Assembly: GCF_000188695.1 (NCBI RefSeq) | Contig: NW_004754931.1 | Span: 789,978-812,477 of the forward strand | Length of the DNA stretch: 22,500 bases | Direction: 5' to 3' | Source: Salpingoeca rosetta | Lineage: Eukaryota; Opisthokonta; Choanoflagellata; Craspedida; Salpingoecidae | Shown here: positions 5,687 through 11,665 of the stretch, in pieces | Numbering within the stretch: the stretch's first letter is position 1 | Layout: every line of letters begins with the position of its first letter | Position numbers and translations under genes: made by a program | Notes under the pieces: generated by a model | Told to the model about the DNA's origin: nothing | What the model saw: the letters and a program-made list of their open reading frames with translations, nothing else | The model's database searches: none

Positions 5687-6838
5687 CTAGATCAGCATGC
5701 AGACCCTTGGCTTTGGTGCCGCGCCGCGTGCAGCACGGCGGCGCTGGTTCGCCCGCTGCACCACCAGCCGCGCAGGCGCAACCGCAACGCCCTGCCCCTG
5801 CAGCGACGCCGCCGTCACGTCCCCCGCCTCAACGAGCAGCTCAAGCATGTCAAACGTCTTGATGCCAAGCTGCGCAAACGCATCGTACACGTCCTCCAAC
5901 ACATCCAGCTCCGCCAGCCACTGCTCCAGGTCACGCTTCATCGCAAAGCCGCGTGGCGGTCCGCCTGAGGATGTGTGGCGTGCACCCTGCTGCCTTTCCT
6001 TTGCCGCCGCCGCACCACGAGGTGCTTGCTCCGCACCGCCGGTTGCCCTCTGGCTGCTGCCTCCTGCCTTGCCACGACCACGACCACGGCCACGACCATC
6101 AATACCCTCGTCACCACCATCACTGCCGCCGCCGTTCTCGGCGTGCTCCTCCCGCGCATTCGCCACGACCTTGCGCACCGTGTCCGCGTGCGACCGCAGC
6201 TGCACCGCCCGGCTGCTGTCGCCGCCGCCCTGCGTCCCAACGCCAACCACGGCGTCAATGTCAAACAGCGCCAGCACGGTCTCCCGCACACTCCGGTGCT
6301 TGCTGGGCGGCGGCGCGTGCAGCACTTGCGCAAAGTACTGGTCCAGCGACGCAGCCGTCTCCTTGCTCACGACGTCCGGTAGCGTCATCGCAACATCGCG
6401 GATGGCGCCAAAGGAATCCCCGCCCCCATCGCCAGTGCTGCCTTCCCCCGCGAGACGGCTGCCGCTGTCGCTGCTCGCGCTGGTGCTGTTGCTGTTGAGC
6501 CACGCGCTCCCCAGGAAGAGCGGCACAATGCGACGCAGCCGGACCTGTGCTGGGTCGTCGCCGTGTGCGTGCACATGGTCGCGCAGCGCCAGCATTGTCA
6601 TCCACTCCAGCAGCACGTTGTCGCAGTAGTCCTCCGTGGCCAGCGTCCGCATGCGCGCAAGGGCACCCGCGGAGACCACGGGGCAGGCCACCAGGCTCAG
6701 TCCAATGGCCGTCATGAACGACAGCTTGAAGTTGAGGCCCGTCTCCAGGTTGTTGGCGTCCAGAAACACCACCAGCCCGTGCTGCTCCAGCATGGGGTGC
6801 AGCGACATCACAAAACCGCTGTTGGCCTGTTGCCTGTG

Positions 6839-6891
<53 letters not shown>

Positions 6892-8848
6892 CATTGTGTG
6901 TGTCATTGTGCGCATGTGCAGGTGAACATCAAGCCTAACTCCATCAGTGATGGGACATCTGCACTCACTCACATTTGCGCACGATACATGCATCAGAAGC
7001 ACAGCCCTCTCCAACATTACACCCTTTTGCCCTCCCCCAACCTGTAGCTGATGAAGACGTCGTACTTGTCCTGCAGCCCGAGCATGGGCAGCAGCGGGCC
7101 AAACCTGGTGGCAAGCATCTTGGCAGACACAAGGTCCTCGTCCACCCACACGTCCTTCTTATTCTTGTGGTGCTGCAGCACGTCGTCGTAGTACAGCAGC
7201 GTTGCGTCATCGTGCGGCAGCAGCAGCCGACTCTGTAGGTCCGCGTACCGCCGCGCCACCGCCTGGCAGATGGTCGTGTACAGCGTGTGTAGCATGGCGC
7301 GCGGCTGCGCACTCGTGATCTTCATCTTGATGCCGCCAACAGCCGGCACAAGCTGCAGCTCCAGCTTGGTTGACTCCAGGAATGCAATGGCGTGCGTGCG
7401 GCTTAGCTTGGGCTCCTGTGATGCACCGTGCTGCGCATGCGCCATCACGTGGGCCAGCACAACGGTGAACAGTCCCTCGGGCAGGAACGATGCGTGTTGA
7501 ATGTCGTCCACCTTGACGCTGGCACCACGCTTGATATCCCGCAGGAAGAACACAATGAACGCCGTCTTCTCCTCGTACCCGCTGTAGGCGTTGGTGTGCT
7601 GCGCTGCTGTCGTGCTCAGCGACACCGCTGCTGCTGCCGCCGTTGCCTTGCCCTGCTTGCCCCCGCCACGAATCGTCATAGGCAGGATCGCAGGCACAAG
7701 AAACTGCTGTTGCTGCTGCTGCTGCTCATTGCGGGCACGCCGCTTGCCTGCCTTGCCACTGCGCTGTGCACCGTGACCAGAGTTGCCGCCGCCGCTGCTG
7801 CTGTTTGCACCATTCCTGCCTTCCATCAGCTTGGGCGGGGTGTACTCGATGCACAGCCCGTACCGCATCATGAGGCGCAGAAACGGCACCACCAGCGCGC
7901 TGTCCATGTCCTTCCACAGCACGTCCAGCACGCGGCGGTGCAGGATGCCCGCGTGGATGAGGTCGCTCCACAGCTCCGTGCCGAGCCGCAGTGCCTCCTT
8001 GTCCCGCACATCCCGGTGCAGGTCAAAGTTGCGGATGACCCGTGACATGGTGTCCACCGCCCACTGCGGGCTCAGGATCACGAAGTTATCCATGCCTTGC
8101 ACGCTGTCGTAGTACAGCACCATCGAGTAGAGGTGGAAGAACTGCAGGCATGCTTTCGTCTCCCTCCTTCCCTGCAGCCCACACGTGCGCGCAATCTCCA
8201 CCACCTCATCGAGCGTGAGCAGCGGGCTGCCCTGCTCCTTGCCAACCTGCATCAGCTTATCGTAGAGGTGGAGGTACGGCAACGCAACCTTCTGGTTCAC
8301 GTACTCCTGCGCTAGTGCTGTGGAGGAGATGGTCTGGCGCAGGTCCTGTATCATGGGGTCGCTGATGGACTTGGTGTTGTCGATGGGCCAGAACCAGAGG
8401 TCGCCCTCTGTGTTGAAGACGACAGAAGGGAAGGCCGGGTTGCTGCTGAAGCGGTTGAAGAGGTCGCGCGAGATGTGCTCGTGCTGCTTGCGCTTCTTGA
8501 CGGCGTCAGCAAAAGAGCCCACCATCAGGATTGGGGCGCTCGTGGCGTGCAGGTGCAGCGAGGACAGCCAGTGGCCAATAAACTCCCACGTCTCTGTCTG
8601 CTTGTTCTCGTCCTTGCTCAGCAGGTCCTCCATGGAAAACACCAGCAGGTACACCGCGTACCTGTTGTTGCAGGTGCAGATGGGGTGGGTGAGAGTGCGG
8701 TGTGGGGTTGGAGGTGAGTTTAGTGAGTGGAGGCGAGGAGAGTGAGGTGAGGAACATGTGGGTGGAAGTGAGGTGAGTGAGGCGAGGAACACGTGCGTAA
8801 CGAAAAATGCATCAAACGCATGCAAGCAGGCACAGCTCATCCGCACAT

Positions 8849-8888
<40 letters not shown>

Positions 8889-9425
8889 GCATACGCACAT
8901 ACACACATATGCAATCACTCACTCTGTGAGGAAGAATGGGTGAAAGACGTAGAAGGTGGACTGGCCGCCGAGGTCAAAGATCTTGAACGTGACCTGCGCC
9001 TTTCCATCGCCAATGGTCGCGTCCATGTCCAGGTCGGCAATCGCCTTCTCCCACCCGTCGTCTCCCAGTGCCGTGTCAACGTCATCCTCCTCCTCCTTCT
9101 CATCCTCTGCACCATCACCATCACCACTCTTCATCTCGTCCGTTTGGGCCGAGCCAGGTCCAGTGGTGCCCGTGTCGTGTGCTTGCTGGTGCTTCTGCAG
9201 GCGCTCCTCAAACTTGCGTCGCGCTTCCTCCATCTTCTCCTGCAGCTCGGCGTCCATGCCCGCCTTTTGCGCCAGCGCCGTGTCCCGCAGACTCCGCGCA
9301 ACCTCAGACAGGCCCTCGTCAACTGCCTGCAAGCATGAGCGGTTGGCGTGGCGATGGCGATGGTGTGGGGATTGGATGGATGAGCGAACAGGGCACGTGG
9401 TTGCAGGGCATGTTTGCGTGAGTGC

Positions 9426-10446: not shown

Positions 10447-10510
<64 letters not shown>

Positions 10511-11572
10511 ACACGGGTGCAGGGGGTCTTAGGGGTTTTGTTGTTGTCTTGTTGATGTGTCGTACCTTGTTGGTGGTGTCATATGCGATGATAACAGCAT
10601 GCGTTCCCCTGAAGTAGCTTGAGATGAGACTGCGGAACCGCTCTTGACCACCAGAGTCCCACTGTCAACATGGAACGGCCAGGTCTCAGCGTGAGTGGTA
10701 GCAGCTGGCCAGAGAAGCTGTTCGTCAGAAACGCTCCGAGAGTGGCCAGCAAGAGGAACAGAGGAGAGGAGGTAGAGCAAGGAGTCATGCATATGCAAGG
10801 AGGGGTCAGCCCACGTACGATCTGAAGCCTGATCTGCTTTCCGTCAACTTCTAGGACCACGGTTTTCTGTTTGGATGGGAGGCCGTTGGTGTGCGCGAGT
10901 GTGGTGGCGAGTGTGAGTGGTGGTGGTAGTGAGTTCGCGCGAATGGGCAGCTGTAGCAACGCAAGTGAATCGGGTGGTCAACAGGTCCTTTGATTGATTT
11001 GGAGACGGCAATAGAGGCCGCAGAGCGGTGAGAAACTTACAAAGTCGACGCCGATGGTGGCGATGTACGTATCGGAGAACGTATGATCCTAATGGAGACG
11101 TGGGCATGTATTGACCAGCGCGTATGAGCAAGTCAGAACCAGGACTGCGTGAAACGATGCAGCATTGACGCATGTGGACCACGCGAAAGCGAAAGGGGCA
11201 CAAGAAAGGGGCGGGGCGAGACTCACAACCCCACAAGCCAACCGAGTTCAAAGACGACAATACATACCCATGCACTCATGCAATATGCAGAAACACACAC
11301 ACACATACACTCACCGCGTATTGGATGACGAGTTGTGACTTTCCAACTTGGGTGTCTCCAATGATAAGAGTCTTGATGAGCACATCCCTGAGTGGGCACG
11401 CGGAAGCACAGAATCGATCGGATAGTGGCGATCGGTGTTGTGACAGTGAGAGGCGGCGTGATGTATGCAATTCCACACAAAGGAACAACAGTGTACACAG
11501 CAAGATCCAAGCACCCACGATGTCACCCACGATGTTACCAACGATGTCATCACCACACGTCACACACACACA

Positions 11573-11645
<73 letters not shown>

Positions 11646-11665
11646 CAGACTCACTTCGAAGCCAT
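5687..11665 (-). CDS. Predicted Rab-Roc-COR-TIR-SAM-like fusion protein with CaaX box (10 exons)
   Basis: Ten coding exons, 5' to 3': 11665-11655, 11387-11315, 11088-11041, 10866-10819, 10661-10566, 10358-10120, 9994-9667, 9326-8923, 8661-7042, 6833-5687. All introns are GT-AG, every junction keeps phase, and the total is 4014 nt (1337 residues). Order: Rab-type GTPase (1-172); Lys-rich linker and helix (172-230); Roc domain with P-loop GQGRAGKT (235-242), DLGGQ (399-403) and GSFAD (464-468); COR (about 500-940); TIR (about 948-1090); SAM-like segment (about 1256-1318); C-terminal CMLI. The TIR has YDVFISYR, FLDANNLETG and Glu1032 in DNVLLEW, aligning with the NADase glutamate of SARM1. CMLI suggests prenylation. 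The fusion is inference from splice phase. The alternative is two genes: a Rab ending by read-through of intron 6 (stop at 10011-10013), and a Roco protein starting at an internal Met just before the P-loop. Confidence 0.68.
6842..6926. repeat. (GT)n in the TIR-interrupting intron
   Basis: A GT run on the plus strand reads as (CA)n in the sense of the minus-strand gene. It lies immediately upstream of the acceptor of the last exon (6834). Confidence 0.95.
8851..8908. repeat. (CA)n in intron 8 of the fusion gene
   Basis: The run reads as GT in the gene's sense and sits just after the donor at 8922. Confidence 0.93.
9425..9660. repeat. Paired (GT)n and (CA)n runs in one intron
   Basis: In intron 7 of the fusion gene (9327-9666), the plus strand shows GT at 9425-9512 and CA at 9601-9658. 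In the gene's sense this is a GT run beside the donor and a CA run toward the acceptor, about 90 nt apart. Confidence 0.93.
10087..10112. repeat. C13 homopolymer plus (CA)n in the junction intron
   Basis: Thirteen C (10087-10099) are followed by a CA run. In the gene's sense it reads GTGTG then G13, directly after the donor of the 125-nt intron that joins the Rab and Roc parts. Confidence 0.93.
10414..10509. repeat. (GT)n in intron 5 of the fusion gene
   Basis: An almost pure GT run with a few AT steps; it reads as CA in the sense of the minus-strand gene. Confidence 0.95.
11568..11644. repeat. (CA)n in intron 1 of the fusion gene
   Basis: A pure CA run reads as GT in the gene's sense and begins about ten bases after the GTGAGT donor at 11654. 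Confidence 0.95.

What the first reader, a model, noticed from the sequence alone, without database searches (positions are those of the whole stretch)
5687..11665. Predicted Rab-Roc-COR-TIR-SAM-like fusion: two GTPase switches upstream of a TIR domain
Seen: ten GT-AG exons on the minus strand keep one reading frame for 4014 nt, from a Rab start codon to a stop after a SAM-like segment. The Rab block has no prenylation tail of its own, and no in-frame Met precedes the Roc exon within its reachable upstream sequence. Known: Roco proteins carry Roc-COR with LRR, kinase, ankyrin or sometimes TIR modules. A Rab domain at the N-terminus is not an arrangement I know. Inference: a Rab-type switch could place or gate a Roc-COR-TIR effector on a membrane.
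Basis: partly seen in the sequence, partly recalled or inferred. Interest (0 to 1): 0.86.

Follow-up and report, generated by a model that had tools for sequence, protein, structure and literature searches.

The report
Rab1-headed Roco-TIR protein, CaaX tail
In a choanoflagellate, a single-celled relative of animals, one gene joins a traffic-control GTPase domain (Rab1) to a LRRK2-like switch and a TIR immune-type domain and ends in a likely membrane-anchoring tag, so a coupling that human LRRK2 makes between separate proteins could be studied within one.

Summary
In detail: ten GT-AG exons (11665..5687, minus) give one frame, 4014 nt, 1337 aa, with Rab, Roc, COR and TIR. It is very probably one gene. 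The six Rab exons share 6 of 6 intron positions and phases with the Rab1 gene of the same genome, and exons 2-5 have equal lengths. The intron joining Rab to Roco is the one that in Rab1 precedes the prenylated tail exon, so the tail exon appears swapped for Roco. Introns 7-9 recur in two other Roco-TIR loci. A complete transcript-derived protein, P0026, has the same order and nearly the same spacing. The TIR keeps the glutamate aligned with SARM1 E642. The Rab G4 motif is degenerate (MKSD), so 'two switches' is unproven. Best reading: a membrane-anchored, Roco-gated TIR enzyme with a Rab1-derived docking or sensing head. Untested: expression, NADase activity, lipidation.

The parts
11655..11665 (-). 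exon 1, MAS-K (start codon), phase-2 intron
   Evidence: Rab1 exon 1 (MNPE-Y) also ends in a phase-2 intron just before the D of DxLxK
11315..11387 (-). exon 2, Rab P-loop GDTQVGKS, 73 nt
   Evidence: same length and phases as Rab1 exon 2
11041..11088 (-). exon 3, Rab switch I (TIGVDF), 48 nt
   Evidence: same length and phases as Rab1 exon 3
10819..10866 (-). exon 4, 48 nt, ends RLQI
   Evidence: same length and phases as Rab1 exon 4
10566..10661 (-). exon 5, Rab switch II WDSGGQERFRSLISSYFRG, 96 nt
   Evidence: same length and phases as Rab1 exon 5
10120..10358 (-). exon 6, Rab G4 (MKSD, degenerate) and G5 (TSAK), 239 nt, phase-2 end
   Evidence: Rab1 exon 6 is 236 nt; with one one-residue gap K172 aligns with Rab1 R172, the split codon before the tail exon
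9995..10119 (-). intron 6, 125 nt, joins Rab to Roco; no ATG, no polyA-type hexamer, no Cys-ending tail in its three frames
9667..9994 (-). exon 7, linker and Roc P-loop GQGRAGKT (9807-9784)
   Evidence: donor position and phase as in L032 and L033
8923..9326 (-). exon 8, Roc insert and DLGGQ
7042..8661 (-). exon 9, end of Roc, COR, first TIR strand (YDVFISY)
   Evidence: Pfam COR-A 2.6e-15; fold of relative P0021 matches Roco and LRRK2
5687..6833 (-). exon 10, TIR, linker, five-helix SAM-like segment, CaaX, stop
6605..6607 (-). Glu1032, aligned with SARM1 catalytic E642 (DNVLLEW)
   Evidence: invariant in 7 of 7 aligned TIRs, LLEW in 28 of 32 family proteins, aligned to the Glu of SARM1 DWVHKE
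5723..5935 (-). five-helix, SAM-like segment (residues 1256-1326)
   Evidence: Pfam SAM_2 over cut-off in P0027 and just under it in P0026
5690..5701 (-). C-terminal CMLI (Cys1334), CaaX-type prenylation motif after a basic stretch

Best explanation
One gene encodes a Roco protein in which exons 1-6 of a duplicated Rab1 gene were joined, through Rab1's own last phase-2 intron, to a Roc-COR-TIR-SAM-like gene; the Rab prenylation exon was thereby lost (origin inferred from intron homology). The protein is probably prenylated at its far C-terminus (CMLI), which would hold it on a membrane (inferred). Roc-COR would act as the GTP-driven switch, as in other Roco proteins, and bring TIR domains together; the TIR keeps the catalytic glutamate and would then cleave NAD+ (inferred). 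The Rab1-like head sits at the N-terminus, where many paralogues carry LRR or ankyrin repeats, and probably serves as a docking or sensing module for Rab1 partners and not as an ordinary cycling Rab, since its G4 motif is degenerate (inferred). Shown: gene structure on DNA and domain order. Inferred: transcription as one unit, lipidation, gating, NADase activity.
For: Exact frame and splice sites; 6 of 6 intron positions and phases shared with the Rab1 gene on the same contig, exon lengths 73/48/48/96 identical, while one other Rab locus looked at, L034, is split elsewhere; introns 7-9 shared with L032 and L033; P0026, transcript-derived complete ORF, same order, Roc P-loop at residue 230 against 235; two further Rab-ankyrin-Roc-COR-TIR loci in the genome, one annotated as a single protein, P0008; CaaX in 5 of 32 family proteins against 0.32 expected, all 5 with I or L at the third CaaX position (relatives not independent); TIR catalytic Glu; COR and TIR folds.
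Against: No RNA evidence for the window gene itself, and no near-identical public protein among the hits of three searches covering 330-2340 aa. The Rab tree does not show the window and P0026 Rabs to be sisters (holding them together is not rejected, p-AU 0.453; in the best tree the window Rab sits with P0008 at 80/54), so fusions may be independent. P0027, sister of P0026, has no Rab. 27 of 32 family proteins have no Cys at -4. TIR_2 is below Pfam's cut-off and Foldseek found no match under E 0.17 for the exon 10 model. Rab G4 is degenerate. A CaaX may stay unprocessed, and the Glu does not prove NADase activity.
Confidence: 0.6

Rival explanations
1. Two adjacent genes: a Rab1 paralogue and a separate Roc-COR-TIR gene starting in exon 7 (Met214), wrongly joined in the model.
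For: In-frame Mets before the Roc P-loop exist; P0027 and most Roco-TIR paralogues lack Rab.
Against: No Rab tail ending in cysteines in the frames of the 125-nt intron, no ATG in it, and none of eight polyA-type hexamers between 11112 and 5551; residues before Met214 are modestly similar to P0026 and P0008; P0026 and annotated P0008 show Rab and Roco in one protein.
Confidence: 0.06
2. The Rab head is only a passive membrane or complex tether; the protein is an ordinary Roco-TIR receptor and the Rab has no sensing role.
For: Degenerate G4; Rab is absent from P0027 and most paralogues.
Against: P-loop, switch I TIGVDF, Gln66 and Rab-type switch sequences are kept in the window copy; Rab heads at three loci and in P0026.
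Confidence: 0.3
3. The Rab-Roco order arose independently in the window lineage, P0026 and P0008/L032.
For: Rab tree unresolved, and the P0026 Rab is nearer to Rab1A (61%) than to the window Rab (45%); in P0008 and L032 ankyrin repeats follow the Rab and the frame runs on past the Rab end without the intron.
Against: Nearly equal Rab-to-Roc spacing and CaaX in both window and P0026.
Confidence: 0.35
4. The TIR acts as a scaffold, not an enzyme.
For: Weak TIR Pfam score; TIR domains are classically scaffolds (PMC8494770, start of abstract in the listing); 4 of 32 family proteins lack the LLEW motif.
Against: Catalytic Glu invariant in the 7 TIRs aligned and aligned to E642; near neighbours by fold include RUN1 and SARM1.
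Confidence: 0.3

Closest known systems
LRRK2 and other Roco proteins
   Same: Roc-COR tandem (profile match to LRRK2 1.6e-14; relative P0021 matches C. tepidum Roco and LRRK2 folds). LRRK2 is recruited to membranes by Rab GTPases (PMC12337188, passages).
   Different: Here the Rab is in the same chain; no kinase match; TIR effector; C-terminal CaaX.
SARM1 / tir-1
   Same: TIR with the E642-equivalent Glu; the end of a profile of window, P0026 and P0027 matches SARM1 SAM (2.2e-10).
   Different: SARM1 is ARM-SAM-SAM-TIR (recalled); here Roc-COR precedes TIR and the SAM-like part follows it.
Rab1
   Same: 48% identity over 168 residues, 6 of 6 intron positions and phases.
   Different: No Cys tail, G4 MKSD, fused at its C-terminal side.
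Large Rab GTPases Rab44, Rab45/RASEF, Rab46
   Same: Rab domain in a long multidomain protein (PMC8303950 and PMC7645795, starts of abstracts).
   Different: Rab44 has its Rab at the C-terminus after EF-hand and coiled coil; here the Rab is N-terminal and followed by Roc-COR-TIR.
Plant NLRs with integrated domains
   Same: A receptor with an appended domain that resembles an effector's target (PMC9528084, PMC10195085, starts of abstracts).
   Different: Not an NLR: Roc-COR instead of NB-ARC; the sensing role here is untested.
Roc-COR-TIR proteins P0050-P0055 from sequence collections
   Same: Pfam labels Roc and TIR_2 in 6 of 6, COR in 5 of 6; 25-30% identical.
   Different: 0 of 6 show the Rab WDxxG motif or a Cys at -4 in the scan.

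Membership tests
Roco | Roc GTPase domain followed by COR | tested here: met
   Roc P-loop exon 28.2 bits against cut-off 27; COR-A 57 bits against 35.3; LRRK2 match; fold of P0021
Rab | Rab-type G domain | tested here: met
   Ras Pfam 8.5e-64, best PDB matches Rab1 and Rab8 (3.1e-50 for the best), Rab1 intron map
Rab | C-terminal cysteine tail directly after the G domain | tested here: not met
   exon 6 goes into the Roco linker; no Cys-ending tail in intron 6 frames
Rab | intact NKxD (G4) | tested here: not met
   MKSD at 121-124
TIR NADase | TIR fold | tested here: met
TIR NADase | catalytic glutamate | tested here: met
   E1032 aligned with the SARM1 Glu; role of E642 in PMC7282519 (passages)
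TIR NADase | NAD+ cleavage | not testable with these tools
   needs an enzyme assay
SARM1 | ARM-SAM-SAM-TIR order (recalled) | tested here: not met
   domain order of the model
LRRK (Roco with kinase) | kinase after COR | tested here: not met
   no kinase among the 13 Pfam families matched
CaaX proteins | Cys at -4 with aliphatic residues | tested here: met
   CMLI
CaaX proteins | lipid attached | not testable with these tools
   needs labelling or mass spectrometry
SAM domain | SAM family match or fold | tested here: inconclusive
   no Pfam match in window protein, five helices, fold list filled by the TIR
Large Rab (Rab44 type) | EF-hand plus C-terminal Rab | tested here: not met
   no EF-hand among Pfam matches, Rab N-terminal

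The most novel reading that the evidence does not exclude
The Rab1-derived head is an integrated decoy: a bait copy of Rab1, no longer an ordinary Rab, set on a Roco-TIR executioner so that a microbe's enzyme acting on Rab1 trips NAD+ destruction. The window head keeps Ser75 and Tyr76, the counterparts of Rab1b Ser76 and Tyr77, known bacterial modification sites (PMC8605245, passages), while its G4 has decayed; many paralogues bear LRR or ankyrin parts at the front. P0026 keeps the pair too. Against it: the pair is ordinary Rab1 sequence, so keeping it may be plain descent, and P0008 and L032 keep the Tyr but have Ile and Ala at the Ser (by eye).
Probability: 0.17. Interest if true: 0.92.

Novelty: new variant of a known kind. 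Interest (0 to 1): 0.72.

Why it matters
LRRK2, a Roco protein of Parkinson's disease, is brought to membranes by separate Rab proteins, and how recruitment links to activation is open (PMC12337188, passages). Here a Rab1 G domain is built into a Roco protein, so Rab-to-Roco coupling could be studied in one chain, in an organism close to animals. The intron map also suggests the route: a Rab1 tail exon exchanged for an effector gene, with a CaaX box at the other end as a possible replacement anchor. The family, with many loci and changing front parts on a TIR effector, looks like a candidate choanoflagellate immune receptor set.

Tried and rejected
Two-gene reading: judged unlikely (no tail exon seen, no start in intron 6, P0026 and P0008). 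Rab tree to date the fusion: unresolved. SAM by sequence: profile A3 gave 0 PDB matches at 0.01; a local hhalign of window-type ends against P0026/P0027 SAM gave probability 2.4; no SAM row was among the 50 shown in the fold list, which the TIR filled. Foldseek on the exon 10 model: 163 matches up to E 10, 0 at 0.001, best a TIR at 0.17. Viral contigs: 33 stretches matched a pattern, 0 confirmed relatives. Literature: Roco + TIR + choanoflagellate gave 0 papers; Roc-COR + TIR domain + Roco gave 1, where the one Roc-COR and one Roco occurrence lie in its reference list; a wider mix of Roco, TIR, Rab and choanoflagellate terms gave 27 papers, 20 listed, none with such a title or abstract start (listing); Rab + Roc domain + prenylation + Roco gave 40, 12 listed, mostly LRRK2 and Rab papers. 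'Not in print' thus covers only these searches of an open-licence library. Richter et al. 2018 (PMC6040629, passages) names Ank, Arm and SH2 with choanoflagellate TIRs and SARM1 homologues; Roco has 0 occurrences in its main text.
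Full report
WHAT IS THERE. The ten-exon model is exact: 11665..5687 on the minus strand, 9 of 9 introns GT-AG, 4014 nt, 1337 aa, one stop. Pfam finds Ras (8.5e-64), Roc (152.4 bits, whose best-scoring stretch is the Rab block, 9-124), COR-A (2.6e-15) and a sub-threshold TIR_2 (25.7 bits, cut-off 28). The Roc exon proper reaches 28.2 bits against the Roc cut-off of 27 in the six-frame search, and its P-loop GQGRAGKT and DLGGQ are intact. A profile of window, P0026 and P0027 matches LRRK2 (1.6e-14), SARM1 SAM (2.2e-10) and SARM1 TIR (1.5e-3) among solved structures.

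ONE GENE, NOT TWO. The genome holds a Rab1 gene on the same contig, about 0.2 Mb away (L035). Its joined exons give 203 aa ending SSSGGCCS, with exon lengths 14, 73, 48, 48, 96, 236 and then a tail exon; the window Rab exons are 11, 73, 48, 48, 96, 239. The six intron phases (2,0,0,0,0,2) agree and the proteins are 47.6% identical over 168 residues. The positions agree 6 of 6: in the BLAST alignment, with a single one-residue gap, window K172 (split by intron 6) stands on Rab1 R172 (split before the tail exon); a MAFFT alignment that included the linkers had set these two apart by gaps. One other Rab locus looked at, L034, is split elsewhere. So window intron 6, which leads into Roco, is the counterpart of the Rab1 intron that leads into the prenylated tail. 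Intron 6 has 125 nt and no ATG; of eight polyA-like hexamers scanned for, none lies between 11112 and 5551. Introns 7, 8 and 9 (phases 0, 2, 2) recur at the same places in L032 and L033.

RELATIVES. A full-length search gave 45 proteins; in a segment-wise BLAST of these 45, only P0026 and P0008 have Rab and Roc-COR-TIR together. P0026 is a complete ORF from an assembled transcript (1315 aa), 38% identical over 86%; the line shown names no species, and the header style recalls the choanoflagellate transcriptomes of Richter et al. 2018 (recalled, not checked). Its Roc P-loop starts at residue 230, the window's at 235. P0008 is Rab-ankyrin-Roc-COR-TIR and is encoded at L033; L032 is a second locus of that kind. 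By eye over, Rab matches lie within 10 kb upstream on the same strand at 3 of the 39 TIR matches (some of the 39 are pieces of one gene; lists are of scored candidates only). P0027 has no Rab match near it. Two more protein searches gave 35 and 19 proteins; I did not BLAST the newly listed P0046-P0065 for Rab, but 0 of these 20 show the Rab WDxxG motif in the scan. All three searches scored only the roughly 8,000 candidates sharing most words. None returned a protein near-identical to the window gene, so a public record of it in 330-2340 aa was not seen.

TREE. On 34 rows of Roc-end, COR and TIR, rooted on the very long row P0034, P0026 and P0027 group (98/91) outside the other 29 of their side; then P0047 parts from 28 rows (94/94), and the window parts from the remaining 27 (96/91). 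Rab at the base with losses, or Rab gained more than once, are about equally cheap; equal spacing and the CaaX in both favour one origin. The Rab tree neither supports nor rejects it (p-AU 0.453); the P0026 Rab is 61% identical to Rab1A and 45% to the window Rab, which fits fast change in the window copy or separate fusions.

C-TERMINUS. The window protein ends NQRRRAARGAAPKPRVCMLI; P0027 ends RRKPRVCVIA, P0026 GSRCTIC, P0001 CCCLLM, P0002 CCALM. Cys at -4 occurs in 5 of 32 family proteins (P0001-P0027, P0029-P0031, P0046 and the window) against 0.32 expected from Cys content, P about 1.6e-5, with the warning that relatives are not independent. The other 27 have none; their last exons are as annotated and were not checked. 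That C-a-a-X is a prenylation signal is established knowledge; that this one is used is inference.

THE RAB HEAD. P-loop GDTQVGKS, TIGVDF and Gln66 are kept; G3 is DSGGQ and G4 MKSD. P0026 has AYAD at G4. P0008 and L032 share a P-loop one residue short (GAVAGKT, GRDAGKT) but keep NKCD; P0008 also has DTGAN at G3. So all four heads depart from the Rab consensus, in two different ways, which speaks against a conserved GTPase cycle. MKSD also occurs in two other long Rab proteins, P0039 and P0041. Switch II SLISSYFRG keeps Ser75 and Tyr76, the counterparts of Rab1b Ser76 and Tyr77.

HOW IT MOST LIKELY WORKS. Shown: gene structure and domain order. From family knowledge: Roc-COR as a GTP-controlled module; TIR NADases act when brought together. 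Inferred: CaaX anchoring, Rab head as sensor or dock at the front, where the paralogues P0001, P0012, P0017, P0022 and P0029 have LRR and/or ankyrin repeats, and NAD+ cleavage as output.

NOVELTY. The parts are known kinds. The arrangement Rab-Roc-COR-TIR with a terminal CaaX was not met in my literature searches, which cover an open-licence library only and were read as listings and passages. I rate it a new variant of a known kind.

Noticed in passing
L010 (G000:C24:706630-707121 +): A single open frame reads Rab1-like, then what looks like PH and protein kinase (by eye): a second kind of Rab-headed fusion in the same genome.
   Followed up: partly
L023 6916-8060 (G000:C3:845600-855500); window 5605-6754: A partial inverted copy of exon 10 (97.3% over 1151 bp) about 56 kb away, with an in-frame stop near its start and the CMLI end kept; window 4196-5285, around the neighbouring TPR gene, also has 73-78% similar DNA there.
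   Followed up: partly
L032 (G000:C2:1119600-1129500): A third Rab-bearing Roco-TIR locus; its linker is 96% that of P0008 while its TIR reads more like the P0002/P0004 group, as if recombined.
   Followed up: partly
window 3548-5071 +: A TPR-repeat ORF of 507 aa beside the gene (TPR_12, 387 bits).
   Followed up: partly
window 12119-14302 -: A glutamine-rich ORF of 727 aa on the same strand upstream; its one Pfam match is weak (DUF4667, 0.0093).
   Followed up: no
P0039, P0041: Other long Rab-bearing proteins also have MKSD instead of NKxD at G4, as in the window.
   Followed up: no
P0047 (contig of 3418 bases): A relative has unspliced-looking sequence right before SYAVYLL, where window intron 8 lies.
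   Followed up: no
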